Below, piece by piece: positions 56,901 to 63,754 of a stretch of DNA of 64,000 nt. Below the pieces are notes generated by a model. The model made no database searches. It was not told the DNA's origin and saw only the letters and a program-made list of their open reading frames with translations. Origin of the DNA: Fistulifera solaris (Eukaryota > Bacillariophyta > Bacillariophyceae > Naviculales > Stauroneidaceae); NCBI GenBank assembly GCA_030295235.1, contig AP026139.1:620001-684000 (forward strand), read 5' to 3'. The position numbers and the translations under genes are program-made. The number at the start of each line of letters is the position of its first letter. Position 1 is the stretch's first letter.

Positions 56901-58894
56901 ATGTCGATTTATCATGAAACTTTACCCGAATGATCTTACCGTCGCTTTTCACGTAGGTTTGGGTATTCAATTCGGCTGTGGCCCAGAAGCAATTCAGCTT
57001 GCTGGAGTCTTATCATTTACACAGGCTCCTTGGATTATGAGTAATCCTTTGATTCATGAACCCAGCAACTTCAATGACCAAGTCGCCAAAGCCTACGTGT
57101 CGCGTTGTCACTTCGACGCAAACTTGTTCTCAGAGCCACTCGCTGTCATGAATCTTATGTGGGAGTATTCCAATTCGCCCAAAAAAGGTAGTTTCTGTCG
57201 GCAATACTCTCTGTATGAACCTCGACTTCGACGCATGGTCAACATATGCGAAAATTTGCAGAGGCGTGTTGCCGATTTCATACAGCTTCCCTCAACAGCT
57301 CTCGACGTGGAAGCACCTCCGATTTTTATGCCCCATGCTAAGATCTGCTTGTTGCGAATCTTACAGGCATGGGTGTTTCACGACAGTGTTATTCAAAGTA
57401 GCCCTCGTGAACAATCCGGCGGTGCAACGGAAGATGCTTATGCCATAGAAATACTCAAGAAGAGTGATCCAATCGAAAATAAACACCTTCAGAAGTTACT
57501 CCACCCCAAGAGACACCCTTATCAGCTACAAAAGGCGAAGAAAACAGAACAGGTGGGGACGTTCTCACTGGGCGATAAAGGCTTCGATGTTGAGGCTTTC
57601 CACGAGCGAATGCTGTCATATGGCACCGAAAAGAATCACGATGTCATATGGTGGGAGAGTAGCGACCAACGCACCTTGTGCATTCAACGAGAAGCTAGTG
57701 CCAAGTTTTCAAACCTGAGCGACAACACAACTTCTGCCTTGTCAGCAAGTCTGCAAACTGAAATCGTGATGCGGATGACCACCAAAACCAAAGGTCGCTC
57801 CGAAAGACCTAGTGGGCTCTGGGTTATCAGTAAGAGTGGCATAGAGAAGAAGAAGAGTGGACTGAAAATTTGGACATGCTATGTTTTTGAGTGTGGTACC
57901 ATTAACAGCAAACGTTGGAACAACATATGCTTTCATTTGGAGGAGCGAATAAAGGCGAATTCGTCGAGTGGGCTTCACATGAAGGTTTCTCACACAGAAA
58001 AACGATCGAGTAAGGGAAGCTTTTCTTTAGAGGCCTTCGGTGGCCCTATCTCAACTGTGGATCTACAAGATATGTTTGCTTCGGCGAGCGTGCTGATTAC
58101 TCGTCACAAGTCGCAAGATTCGGAGCAGAGAATTGTTTTTATCAAACCGAAAGTAAGCCTCTTGGTTCTTCGGGCGATATCTCAAACACAAGCTGGGCCC
58201 GTCCTCCTGTGCAATCAAATGCGCCAGAAGGTGCTCGATTGCTCAGCGTTCTAGCATCAGGAAGGCGAAAGGCTCACATGGTCCGGATGGACTCGGACGT
58301 GAAGAAAAATGATGGTAATGAGCAAGTGTATGTGGATATGCTCTTGAATCGCGAAAAAACGAGTCTAGCAGTTCGATGGAAACGTGCCGGCAATAATGTT
58401 TACGTTAATGAAAATTCTGTACCAGCAACCACACTTCCTCTTGGGGGTGCCAACAGCTTATTTTGCGTCTGTGCCAATGCTCTTGAAGTCAAAGGTGGAG
58501 GAGTTCGGGTTGAAGGTTTAACGCTTCTTCCTCAAGGCCGATTCTTTTCATGTTGTGTAGACTTACGTTTGGTTTATTCCAAGAGGCTAACCTTTTGGAT
58601 GGGAGTCTGATTGACAAGAGCGTTACTTGGATCTCTCAGGCGAACCAAAACGAAACAGCTGATAAAAATCTTGTTCGTGAACGTGTGACAAAGGCTGTCA
58701 AGTTTCATGAGGGAGCCACTGCAATGGGCGAGGATTTAGTGTGTTATCCTGATAAAGTCGTCGAATTGTTACAGATTTTCGATAAGGTGGATGGCCATAA
58801 AACGAAAGCCTGGGAGTCACTGTACTCCAATCCATTCACGAAGAAGAACATCAAAAACGCGAAATATGTTAGAAAAGCTACACCGGAATACTAA
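53928..58894 (+). CDS. Asteroid/FEN1-like nuclease fused to DEAH-box (RHA-type) helicase
   Basis: About 1634 aa. Residues 1-330 look like an XPG/FEN1-type nuclease of the asteroid group: MGVHGWTSFLVDSEI, VVLHVDGSGLVYQLFLVAS (Asp of the N-region), FKIYWDGDLRPKYKARESKR, SIFCKGEADYEIAKAALQ (GEAD of the I-region), LQVVVGNDSDFSFF (NDSDF) and VEVALALGNDFVPP. From about residue 520 there is a DEAH/RHA helicase: IIQGETGCGKSSRLP (Walker A), LIVDEVHERSVDTDLL, LVLMSATL, SVLIFVPGMNEIVS, MIATNAAESSVTL and TQRAGRTSRVRPGTVY (motif VI). HA2/OB-like and C-terminal regions follow. A 65-nt intron (56892-56956) joins SLI to GLGIQFGCGPEAIQLAGVLS. Three missing bases (near 54369-54372, 58162-58166 and 58558-58562) are bridged. 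Convergent with the Tudor/PHD gene. Confidence 0.85.
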
Positions 58895-58961
58895 CCTTAT
58901 TCAACAAGTTAAAGTGACTTTCATTAACAAATTTAGATCAGTTTGTTCGTAACCCGTACCA

Positions 58962-60623
58962 TTAAGATAGATTAAAGAAGGATTCTAATTGCCGGCAAGG
59001 AGGGCAAATAAAATTGCGCTCATCGTAGTCGTTGGCATCACCTGCGATTTCTAAACAACCAGTACAGCAGAAGTGGTTGCACAGATCGCAATAGTAACCG
59101 TGATCTGGATCCTTCCCATAACACGAAAAACAATCTACAGCAATAGCTGACTTCTCACCGGGTCGATAGGTGTGCATCCCATTGGAGATATTGTATTTGC
59201 TGTACTCGCAAAGCGTATGCTCAATTTCCTTTAAGGCGAGTCGTTTTCCGCCAAAGTACGGAAACTCGAGCCCGAGAATCTGAAATGCATTTTCTTGCAG
59301 TGCGGTCAAAATACGCGCGAGCTGCAGGTGTTTCTCAACTCCTTTCAACACCTCCAGTGAGTTTTTACTTGTGCGAAATACGAGCTTGAGACCTTCTGTT
59401 GTCGGTCGATTGTTAGAGAGTGATGCACCATTGGAGCACAGGGACAATCGTTGATCACTTACCCTTAGCCCCCGGCCCAAGTACGCAAAAATTGTAGTCG
59501 ATTTTGAGGCAACCACAGGTTTCCATGTCACATAAAATTTGCCACGCATAAAAGTCTCCCACTAACTTCATACCCCGGAGAACGTCCAATTTGTCTTTCG
59601 ATGTAGATGCCGCATAAAAGTCGTCAACGATCGTGTCCAAGTTGTTCAAAGTAAGATTTAGTGCCTTCATATACGGCTCAAATCCACTCACATTATGGGC
59701 ACCTGTGAAAATGCGGATTTCGCTTGATCACGATAAACCTGTGCTCTCCGACTGTAAGCTTGCAAAGACGCGTCAGTCGGTTCTGCGAATCCAATGTTTT
59801 CAAACGTCTCAACACGGTTCACGAGCCGATACATGTACGACCGCCAAAGAACTTGTTTCGTCCATTCCTTATGACTCCAGGGTCGCGGGATACAACGTGG
59901 ATTGTCATGTTGTTTGTCGTCCGACGAATAAAATAACTCCAAAATGGATGCTTTGAGAAATATGGTTCCACGATCAAGTTCCCGATAGATATTGCAAAAC
60001 GAGTGACGGGACATTCGTTCGTTCAATGAATATGGAAAATTTTCGGGATGTTGCATCTTCCGTTCCCACATTCGTTGTCGTTCGTACGCAAAAGATAAAA
60101 CTCCAAAATGTGCCATGACACGTGAGAGGATGAAATTCCCGGAATGAACGATGTCTTGTGTTGAAAGTTTTTTTGTTCAAGTCCCTGTAAGCTAAACAAA
60201 CAGTTGGTACATCGTATGTGCTGTGCCTCTGTTGCATACTTGATTTTCTTTGACAATGAAATATCGATCATCTCCATCACGAGGAGTTCGTCATCATCCA
60301 ACTGTATTGCTGATTCCTCATCGCCGTCATCATAAATGATACTAACATAGGAGCCTTCGACAAACTCCACCGTTCCATAGAAGTATACGCCATCGAATTT
60401 CTTGTATTTTGAGGTTGCGTAAGGGTCTGTTTCGAATGCAAGTAGTGCGCAAAAACTCGCTGGGAAGATATAAAAAAAACTCGCGTACCTTTTTGATTCT
60501 TTGACCGAAATGAAACGTAGGACAAGGTACTTTACGTTTGACATCGACTATGGGACGAGACAATACTTCGTCTACGTGTACAAGCGGAAGTGGAGCATCG
60601 GAAGGATGCTTCGTTGTTGACAT
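58962..60623 (-). CDS. Tudor-like / aGPT-PPlase (ADDT, amino-acid:DNA-transferase-like) / PHD protein
   Basis: About 512 aa. Residues 75-115 are Tudor-like (FDGVYFYGTVEFVEGSYVSI then YDDGDEE). Residues about 140-430 match the alpha-glutamyl/putrescinyl-thymine pyrophosphorylase (ADDT/AADT) clade known from phage DNA hypermodification: RVMAHFGVLSFAYERQRMWE, SFCNIYRELDRGTIFLKASI, AFFTGAHNVSGFEPYMKALN, GMKLVGDFYAWQILCDM (helix-hairpin-helix-like) and CVLGPGAKEGLKLVFRTS. Residues 455-505 are a PHD/ZZ-like zinc finger (CFSCYGKDPDHGYYCDLC, HFCCTGCLE, FICPPC). Start ATG at 60623. Introns 60185-60239 (55 nt) and 59396-59462 (67 nt). Breaks: extra T in the T8 run (60472-60479), extra A in the A7 run (60168-60174), one missing base at 59708-59711. 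Chemistry in eukaryotes is unproven; a DNA-base-modification or reader role is inferred. Confidence 0.78.
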
Positions 60624-61217
60624 GTTTTGGTAAACAATGGCAATAATGATAAAAGTACTAGTAATGCAAGGGAAACATCGCACCGATCGCGATCGTCGTC
60701 GGATTTTTTTTCGGCTTCCAACTCCCGTTCAACGAACAAACCGCATTGAGGTACGGGATACTATTATGGCCTGCCGTACTAAGTCTACGAGGATTTCCCG
60801 TGGATATTCGAAGCGTTGCAACGATTGACGACGACTCCTCTTTCATCTCTACTTCTGGTACAGTTCGAATTGGTTCTGATTATTGTTACATGATAAGACG
60901 AGCTATACCAGGTATACTGGGTGAAACAAAAAAAAACGCTGGTGGCAAAGCGGACACAAGAAACAGGCCTACGTGATTTTCTCTTGTAAGACATTCGATT
61001 GATTTGTATTTCTTTTTTGATTTTCATAGCCAATATTAATATTGTACTTGTAAATTGATATGAATCATCATCCATGTTCGGGCAGGATACATTTGTGGTA
61101 ATGGATCAAGTCAACTTATTAGGATGGCCACTATCGAGCCATAACAGAGATGAGACGGCTCGCGACTGGTTTCGCTTTGAGTCTTGAGTTAACGTCGGCA
61201 TCATTATTTACAGCTTG
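60624..61217. other. Divergent promoter region Tudor/PHD gene and 2OG oxygenase
   Basis: About 590 bp shared by two head-to-head genes. I see no gene or clear repeat in it. Confidence 0.6.
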
Positions 61218-62195
61218 ATGCTCGATCGCGATGCCTTTTACACAACGAAAACGTCTCGCCTTGTTGACATCACAACAAAACCAATGTCGTCTCCAGTGCC
61301 ATCCTTTGTTCGTCCTACAATACTAAATGAAATCAATAAACAGGTAGTTCGTCGAAAACTAGCGCGGCAACGTCACTGTCTTATTGAACAAGGCATCCAA
61401 CCGGAATATTTGGACTCTCTCTTTCCTCCACTCTTAGAATTGTTTGCCCCTCAGTCCGTACAATACAATGGAGGCATTGCGGGTGTCAAAGATTGGAAAA
61501 TATCATGTTATTTAGAAGTCATGCCAGGCGGTGTTCCTACGACGGAACCCAATGTAGATTTACTGCAATTATTTTTGCCCCTGTTGGAGGCATGTAATGT
61601 ACTGTTCTGTCACTGGTATCGACAACAACATGCCTGTAATCACAACAGCAACGTGAAGACTTCCGCTGTGCAATGCGAACGTCTCATGACGTTTATAACT
61701 CGATACACTCCTGCTCCGGGAGAACAAGCTCTGCTGAAAGTGCGTACATAGCCGAATACTCGCTAATATACTCCTCATCAGCCTCTCATCCAATGCCATC
61801 TTTGTTTCTTTCCTCTTTATTATTTATTCTGCAGCACGTCGATGGAGCAGGCAAAGTAGATGGGTCTATTGTAGTGGCCTTGCCCATTGATCGATGGTCA
61901 CCGGGAGGTGATCATTTGTTTGAAGGAGGTGGGTTAACCTTTTGGGATGGCAAGGGAAGTGATGGTTCACCACTCGAGACACATTATGATACAAGATCTG
62001 GCGATATTGCCTTTATCGATCGGTACGTAAACAAAAGTGCGTTTTTTCATCAATTTAGTGGCCTGTAAAAACCTGTCACGAACGAATGGCTTACGTGTTG
62101 TTGTTCTTCGTAATTACAGCGCGGTATGGCATCAAGCCGATCCAATTACGAAAGGAACGCGCTGGGCGCTAGTGATTTTCTACAGAGTGCTTTGA
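61218..62195 (+). CDS. 2-oxoglutarate/Fe(II)-dependent oxygenase (P4H-like)
   Basis: Non-heme iron oxygenase, 261 aa over three exons (61218-61739, 61835-62022, 62120-62195; introns 95 and 97 nt), all in phase with no frame break. ITRYTPAPGEQALLK is followed across the first junction by HVDGAGKVDGSIVVALP, giving the HxD metal ligands. EGGGLTFWDGKGSD and YDTRSGDIAFIDR follow, then across the second junction AVWHQADPITKGTRWALVIF, with the distal His and the Arg that binds 2-oxoglutarate. This is the prolyl-4-hydroxylase-like double-stranded beta-helix. The substrate (protein, small molecule or nucleic acid) cannot be read. It does not carry the features I would expect of TET/JBP base hydroxylases. 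A later ATG at 61284 is also possible. Confidence 0.88.
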
Positions 62196-62435: not shown

Positions 62436-63094
62436 TTATTCCCATCCGGCCTCCGAGGAACTGATCACATAAGCGGCAACATTGGCAATCTCATCATCAG
62501 CTAGACGTCCGCCGAAAGCAGGCATGGCGTTCTTTCCGTTGGTGACTTGGCTGATGACGGCCTTCTCGTTTCGGCCACCAGCCAAGTATTGCTCCAAGGC
62601 CTCCTTCTCCAAGGTCTTTTCGGGCATGATCACGTTTTGTCCTCCAGCGTGGCAAGCGGCGCAGTTGGCGTTGAAGACTTGTTCTCCGGCGGCAACATCG
62701 GCGGCGAAGACGGGTTGACTGGCGATGACCGCAGCAGCACCAATGGTGGCGGCACCTTGGGCAGCCTGATGAGAACAGCGATCATAGAACGTGAGAGATA
62801 TCGAGACATTCAACATAAAAACGAAAGAATATTTGTAATGTCAAGATGTTGTTGAAGAGAGACAGCAAGTTATTGATTCACAGTTCGTGTTGGCACGAGC
62901 CAAGCACGAGGTAACGGACGGAGAAAGCGTGCCTACGTTTTTCCCTGGCGCTCCTTTTTGCAGCGACGCAACCTGTTGCGGAAGGATCGGCTTTCTGCTT
63001 TCTGGGGAACGATTTATAACATTTGCAAACGTACCTGCTTAATAGAGAAAGCCGAAGCACTGGCGAGAAGGGAGGCAACAATAGCGATCTTCAT
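62436..63094 (-). CDS. petJ: Cytochrome c6 precursor
   Basis: Soluble thylakoid-lumen electron carrier from cytochrome b6f to photosystem I, nucleus-encoded. Exon 1 (63094-63035) encodes exactly [20 protein letters not shown], a signal peptide ending in the diatom plastid ASAF motif. A 269-nt intron (62766-63034) separates it from the rest. Exon 2 begins [20 protein letters not shown], the lumenal (thylakoid) signal with an AFAAD-like site (VFAADVAAG), then the mature protein of about 87 aa. The heme site is [11 protein letters not shown] (CxxCH); the sixth ligand Met is in [20 protein letters not shown]. It ends SSSEAGWE at 62436. 129 aa in total, no frame break. Convergent with the 2OG oxygenase. 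Confidence 0.97.
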
Positions 63095-63754
63095 TTTATT
63101 GATTATTGTATTGTATTGGTGTTTATTACGGTCGTTTTTGACAAAAGTGTGTCTTTTTTATCTCGACGTCTGTGTTGAGAAAGCACGGTCAAGAGAGAAG
63201 GTCCAACGTAAGGGACGGCGAACGGCGACTGACGAAAGTTGAATGTATCTTTTGGATTTGGTGTTCCGACGGAATCTTGCCATCTTTTGGTGAAGAGCTA
63301 TGGTCTCTCGGCAAGTAAAAGGTAAATCTGGGAGTGTGGACTATCTTGGAGTGTACCAAACGCGCCCGTCACGCGCAGACTACGTCCACTGTTTCTACGA
63401 ACACCACCGCCGCTCGGAGACGTCAACAAGTTGTCAAACTTGGATCTTGCAATCGGAAGAGGAGGACGAACGCCAGATTCCAGATTCCATGATGACGCCG
63501 TTGTTACAAGAACTCGGTTGATGACAGACGATCGGAAATCGGAACTACTGTCCGTCATCCGTCCGCGAAACGACGTGGCAGGGTCGCACGTCTCGCTGTT
63601 TCAAACACGCGCAGAACAGAAATCAAAACCTCGCCCGTACTCGCAAACCTGCACCGTAAATTGTTGTGAGCAATATACTTGTAGCATTCCATTGTCGATC
63701 TTTCTCCTTTCCCTCTTTTGTGCAAGAAAGATTCATTACAATCATTAATCAACC
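63095..63754. other. Divergent promoter region petJ / BTB gene
   Basis: About 660 bp, no gene that I can support. It should carry the promoter of the highly expressed petJ gene. Confidence 0.6.

What the first reader, a model, noticed from the sequence alone, without database searches (positions are those of the whole stretch)
58962..60623. Eukaryotic thymine-hypermodification-like domain between a Tudor and a PHD finger
The core (SFCNIYRELDRGTIF, AFFTGAHNVSGFE, GMKLVGDFYAWQILCDM) matches the aGPT-PPlase/ADDT clade that Iyer, Aravind and colleagues (2013) predicted in DNA base hypermodification; in phages, relatives act on pyrophosphorylated 5-hydroxymethyl-dU in DNA. Here it is flanked by a Tudor-like and a zinc PHD-like domain, i.e. 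chromatin readers. This suggests a nuclear protein that recognises or modifies DNA (or reads histones while acting on DNA). Whether the domain is still catalytic is unknown.
Basis: partly seen in the sequence, partly recalled or inferred. Interest (0 to 1): 0.88.

Follow-up and report, generated by a model that had tools for sequence, protein, structure and literature searches.

The report
Diatom chromatin protein with phage base-modifying domain
A diatom gene joins two probable chromatin-reading domains to a domain that phages use when they chemically modify thymine in their DNA; its conserved residues are intact, so it may bind or alter an unusual DNA base in a nucleus, but no modified base has been shown.

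The parts
58962..60623 (-). whole gene: exon 1 60623-60489, exon 2 60400-59463, exon 3 59395-58962; encodes a Tudor - HMUDK_hel - PHD-like finger protein (P0001, FisN_24Lh077, 502 aa)
60401..60488 (-). intron 1, 88 nt, GT-AG
   Evidence: agrees with public protein P0001
59396..59462 (-). intron 2, 67 nt, GT-AG; 62 of 67 bases identical to the homeolog
   Evidence: agrees with P0001
60266..60524 (-). Tudor-like domain (about aa 34-90, interrupted by intron 1)
59178..60121 (-). HMUDK_hel / aGPT-PPlase clade 1 domain (about aa 139-431, interrupted by intron 2), predicted HhH DNA-glycosylase-like fold
   Evidence: family; fold; invariant residues
58995..59132 (-). PHD-like zinc finger with Cys in all eight ligand positions (aa 447-492)
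   Evidence: Pfam gives only zf-RING_5 below cut-off

Best explanation
A nuclear chromatin protein (localisation inferred from domains only) whose middle domain is a DNA-base-handling module of phage type. Shown: homology to HMUDK_hel; a predicted DNA-glycosylase-like fold; family-invariant residues kept; purifying selection; no kinase domain. Inferred: the domain extrudes a thymine-type base from the duplex into its pocket, as other proteins of this fold do, and recognises it (T, 5-hydroxymethyl-U or a derivative); the Tudor and the PHD-like finger place it on particular nucleosomes; the chemistry, if any, is done by a separate partner enzyme. In phages the same module would present 5-hmdU to whichever enzyme modifies its hydroxyl group (kinase or, apparently, glycosyltransferase). 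In eukaryotes it serves as reader or adaptor.
Confidence: 0.45

Rival explanations
1. It is itself a DNA-modifying enzyme: the HMUDK_hel pocket catalyses a transfer or related reaction on a 5-substituted thymine in chromatin, as its sister family ADDT does in phage DNA.
For: Predicted common fold and alignable profile with the solved transferase PUGT/ADDT, including an E..LC motif near the C-terminus (E417/C421 here); polar residues invariant across phage and eukaryotic-type relatives; HMUDK_hel present in phage records without detectable kinase or ADDT.
Against: No member matched the ADDT profile at E 1e-3 (0 of 52); where a kinase is present the P-loop protein can account for the kinase chemistry; no known source of the hydroxymethyl group found in the diatom genome.
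Confidence: 0.3
2. It is a DNA glycosylase-like repair or surveillance protein that removes or guards oxidised thymine (for example 5-hmU that arises from oxidative damage), guided by histone marks.
For: Predicted HhH-glycosylase-like fold; OGG, EndoIII, AlkA and MutY entries are among the matches.
Against: No DNA glycosylase family among Pfam matches at E 1; the position where HhH glycosylases carry their catalytic Asp appears as D, N or S in my alignment (read by eye, uncertain); phage relatives sit in modification cassettes.
Confidence: 0.12
3. It is a domesticated phage domain whose pocket function has been lost, kept only as a structural or DNA-binding part of a chromatin protein.
For: No pathway partner found in the genome.
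Against: Residues invariant in the phage relatives are kept in P0001, and dN/dS is 0.167.
Confidence: 0.08

Closest known systems
HMUDK_hel (PF18723, aGPT-PPlase clade 1), e.g. Pseudomonas phage M6 gp055, SN1_020
   Same: same family by profile; 24 columns invariant in an alignment with M6 gp055 and PaMx11 gp50
   Different: the phage proteins seen here are about 280-345 aa when standalone, or fused to a P-loop kinase (Goe26), in or near modification cassettes; the diatom protein has a Tudor-like domain and a PHD-like finger and no kinase
ADDT, amino acid:DNA transferase (PF18724, aGPT-PPlase clade 2): M6 gp051, PaMx11 gp46/PUGT (PDB 8z2m, 8z2n)
   Different: no direct profile match; different conserved residues outside the aligned stretch
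5-hmdU DNA kinase P-loop subunit HMUDK_HMUD1 (PF18748): M6 gp054; fused in Goe26
   Same: partner of HMUDK_hel in phages (neighbour or same chain)
   Different: absent from the diatom protein and not detected in its genome
Queuosine salvage enzyme DUF2419 (QNG1, name recalled) and HhH-GPD DNA glycosylases (OGG, EndoIII, AlkA)
   Same: fold, by structure comparison of predicted models only
   Different: no sequence family match

Membership tests
HMUDK_hel / aGPT-PPlase clade 1 (PF18723) | profile match above the curated cut-off | tested here: met
   122.1 bits against 25; three unmended pieces also pass
HMUDK_hel / aGPT-PPlase clade 1 (PF18723) | conserved motif residues (N..RE.D..T, R..N, T.A, G.F, D337, GPG, EH.LCE..K) | tested here: met
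   24 invariant columns in 14 rows with M6 gp055 and PaMx11 gp50; 9 in 52 rows
5-hmdU DNA kinase holoenzyme | P-loop kinase domain, fused or as a partner gene | tested here: not met
   no PF18748 in the protein and no match in the 51.7-Mb genome, exon-wise six-frame search; the same search finds it in phage M6
ADDT amino acid:DNA transferase (PF18724) | profile match | tested here: not met
   not among the hits of P0001 at E 0.1; 0 of 52 relatives at E 1e-3
ADDT amino acid:DNA transferase (PF18724) | fold | tested here: met
ADDT amino acid:DNA transferase (PF18724) | transfer of an amino acid to phosphomethyl-U in DNA | not testable with these tools
   needs an enzyme assay
HhH-GPD DNA glycosylase superfamily | sequence profile match | tested here: not met
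   no such family among Pfam matches at E 1
HhH-GPD DNA glycosylase superfamily | fold | tested here: met
HhH-GPD DNA glycosylase superfamily | catalytic Asp after the hairpin | tested here: inconclusive
   D, N or S by eye; alignment uncertain there
Tudor domain (PF21743 PTM_DIR17_Tudor) | profile match above cut-off | tested here: inconclusive
PHD finger | C4HC3 zinc ligands | tested here: not met
   Cys in place of His5; of 26 relatives with the finger 12 have His and 14, P0001 included, have Cys
thymine hypermodification pathway | source of 5-hmU (TET/JBP) | tested here: inconclusive
   no PF12851 match in own genome, but exon-wise and without a true positive control; a hydroxymethylase route was not tested

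The most novel reading that the evidence does not exclude
Diatoms and other eukaryotes carry an undescribed chromatin-linked system that reads or writes a modified thymine in nuclear DNA, built on a base-flipping module captured from a phage or archaeal virus and tied to histone marks by Tudor and PHD-like domains. In phages the same module would be a general 5-hmdU presenter serving kinases or glycosyltransferases, not merely a kinase part.
Probability: 0.3. Interest if true: 0.9.

Novelty: new variant of a known kind. Interest (0 to 1): 0.62.

Why it matters
Thymine modification in nuclear DNA is established in few eukaryotes; base J of kinetoplastids is the best-known case (recalled; abstracts in the listing). 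A eukaryotic-type clade that keeps the conserved residues of a phage DNA-base-modification module, coupled to probable chromatin readers, makes it testable whether diatoms mark thymine. F. solaris is a good place: Cas9-RNP editing of both homeologs at once is published (PMC13276009; abstract and outline seen). It also suggests that the Pfam name '5-hmdU DNA kinase, helical domain' hides a glycosylase-fold, ADDT-related module with wider use.

Tried and rejected
Treating every frame break as a homopolymer error (my first read-through) was wrong: two of the breaks are introns. A third intron of about 47 nt was considered and put into the queries; it was dropped when P0001 showed no intron there.

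TET/JBP, 5-hmdU kinase, ADDT and TAGT searches of the own genome found nothing. Rfam found no RNA family in 58900-60900 at gathering thresholds, so the conserved intron 2 remains unexplained. Foldseek alone gave no match below E 0.001; the fold statement rests on VIA-align 2 re-alignment and on the uniformity of its list for the standalone domain. Sequence search of the PDB with the family profile gave only chance-level hits (best E 0.058), and M6 gp055 gave none at E 1. Neighbours of the domain in kinase-less viral contigs were searched in Pfam and PHROGs: apart from thymidylate synthase, a dNMP kinase and a weak zinc-ribbon-like match, most had no family, and TAGT was not found in the 7 viral contigs searched.

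Literature: Iyer et al. 2013 (10.1093/nar/gkt573), Lee et al. 2018 (PMC5889632), Lee et al. 2022 (10.1093/nar/gkab781) and the review PMC11163837 are not held; what I know of them is recalled or comes from other papers. I recall that Iyer 2013 already named stramenopile algae among eukaryotes with such systems. Searches of the open library listed no paper on a eukaryotic HMUDK_hel protein; most listings were capped (for example 20 of 405, 12 of 45, 12 of 236, 10 of 153) and the key papers are not held, so this does not show absence from print. Passages only were seen of PMC6449724 (5hmdU in M6, ViI and phi-W14 is phosphorylated by a 5hmdU DNA kinase and then modified further), PMC5977210, PMC6457204, PMC11550810, PMC11955845 and PMC10458263.

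Limits of counts: the whole-record kinase search in viral contigs covered 13 of the 20 loci, 12 of them chosen because no kinase was seen nearby; two of those (L009, L010) carry identical copies of the domain. The eight complete phage genomes were hand-picked from 480 and 23 matching records. In one search the 79 rows had been chosen by motifs that include some of the residues counted, so the invariance claims rest. The tree used 79 of 128 domain-bearing rows: 46 were removed as incomplete and 3 for missing motifs; its root is the midpoint, for drawing only. Of the 28-row clade five are named or from a eukaryote source (P0001, P0013, P0016, P0022, P0073). One archaeal-bin row with that motif (L041) lies in the M6-side clade, and one row without the motif also has a finger (1 of 33).

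Full report
Identity and gene structure. The protein P0001 found by the whole-database search is FisN_24Lh077 of Fistulifera solaris, 502 aa, a diatom. The window lies in a 51.7-Mb assembly with a second copy of the gene on contig C28, about 88% identical in DNA over the same neighbours. This fits the published allopolyploid genome with two homeologous subgenomes (PMC5935921, passages seen). The window gene runs from ATG 60623 to the stop ending at 58962 and encodes P0001 residue for residue in five exact segments. Two GT-AG introns (88 and 67 nt) explain two of the breaks; the other two are single-base steps in homopolymer runs. Between homeologs dS is 0.423 and dN 0.071, ratio 0.167, over 434 codons (one codon skipped, the linker between Tudor and core left out because of the frame).

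Family. P0001 matches PF18723, HMUDK_hel (E 3.8e-35), with a sub-threshold Tudor match. Pfam keeps ADDT (PF18724) apart: M6 gp051 is ADDT (E 1.4e-46), M6 gp055 is HMUDK_hel (8.1e-56), M6 gp054 is the kinase PF18748 (7.7e-18). The record of the related phage SN1 names the same genes aGPT-Pplase2, aGPT-Pplase1 and P-loop kinase (PMC9476957 read whole). Thus the finding belongs to clade 1, the kinase-associated clade, not to the amino-acid transferase clade.

Conservation. Nine columns are invariant in 52 of the 67 hits. In 14 rows with M6 gp055 and PaMx11 gp50, P0001 among them, 24 are.

What the module does in phages. Kinase and HMUDK_hel are fused in Goe26 (kinase at aa 35-193, HMUDK_hel at 312-597) and are neighbours in M6. 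But a kinase lay near the domain in only 6 of 20 viral-contig loci; of 12 records without one nearby that were searched whole, 11 had none anywhere (many are fragments). Of eight hand-picked complete phage genomes five had a kinase match (PaMx11 below cut-off) and four an ADDT match (LysYB1 below cut-off); LuckyBarnes, Montesquieu and Chepli had neither, while all three have a thymidylate-synthase-like gene nearby. LuckyBarnes has two TAGT glycosyltransferase genes overlapping and just upstream, and Chepli has one near its thymidylate synthase. The common factor is a probable hydroxymethyl-pyrimidine context with a kinase or a glycosyltransferase as partner. This favours a substrate-presenting module over a kinase part, but own catalysis is not excluded. 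In Montesquieu, and in the 7 viral contigs searched for TAGT, no partner was identified.

Eukaryotic forms. In the tree 28 rows form one clade (100/98). With the midpoint root they lie in a class with many viral-contig and some archaeal-bin sequences, separated by a long branch (0.88, 100/100) from the M6 clade. Named members are diatoms (Fistulifera, Amphora, Cyclotella, Epithemia) and one eukaryote transcriptome entry without an organism name in the output (P0022). Of 54 rows with the AWQ motif 32 reach the C-terminal motif, and 26 of these have an eight-ligand finger directly after it: 12 with His in position five as in PHD, 14 with Cys, including P0001. Pfam finds the Tudor in 10 and PHD in 3 of 52 mixed rows; no kinase and no ADDT.

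Pathway partners in the diatom. No match for PF18748, PF18724, PF20691 or PF12851 in the genome. The first two searches work on M6 and the third on LuckyBarnes, but a six-frame search by exon can miss genes split by introns, and PF12851 had no true positive control. HMUDK_hel matches in the genome lie only in the two homeologs; a second query found besides these only short finger matches elsewhere.

Verdict. A nuclear thymine mark in diatoms is a testable possibility, not a result.

Noticed in passing
window 59396-59462 (intron 2): The 67-nt intron differs from its homeolog at only 5 bases, although synonymous sites of the gene differ at 32% (binomial probability 1.3e-6 at that rate, 4e-4 at 0.24, 0.17 at 0.12). 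Possible constraint or local gene conversion; no Rfam hit.
   Followed up: partly
window about 61284-62194, + strand: Head-to-head neighbour is a 2OG-Fe(II) oxygenase gene (PF13640, E 7.9e-6, 27.2 bits at a cut-off of 27, on a hand-spliced reading), present beside the homeolog too. It did not match TET/JBP; whether the pairing means anything is unknown.
   Followed up: partly
window 56902-58894, + strand: A neighbouring gene (continuation of a DEAH-helicase-like frame, recognised by eye) is split over several frames in the window, while the homeolog L006 has a 673-aa open frame there: another sign of small length differences in this assembly.
   Followed up: no
window 62436-63096, - strand: Cytochrome c-like gene (heme motif CAACH) interrupted by an intron; recognised by eye, no family search done.
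   Followed up: no
L007 5186-5749; L029 7159-7728; phrog_800: Phage 5-hmdU DNA kinases are annotated as 'terminase small subunit' in the M6 and PaMx11 records and in PHROGs.
   Followed up: yes
L049, L050, L052: M6-like hypermodification cassettes (kinase, HMUDK_hel, ADDT, PLP, radical SAM and thymidylate synthase homologs) lie on contigs binned as Anaerolinea and Thermogutta genomes, perhaps phage contigs in those bins.
   Followed up: no
L037-L040: HMUDK_hel genes without a kinase or ADDT match within the fetched flanks on contigs of Nanoarchaeota, Aenigmatarchaeota, Woesearchaeota and Patescibacteria bins, one on a 576-kb contig.
   Followed up: partly
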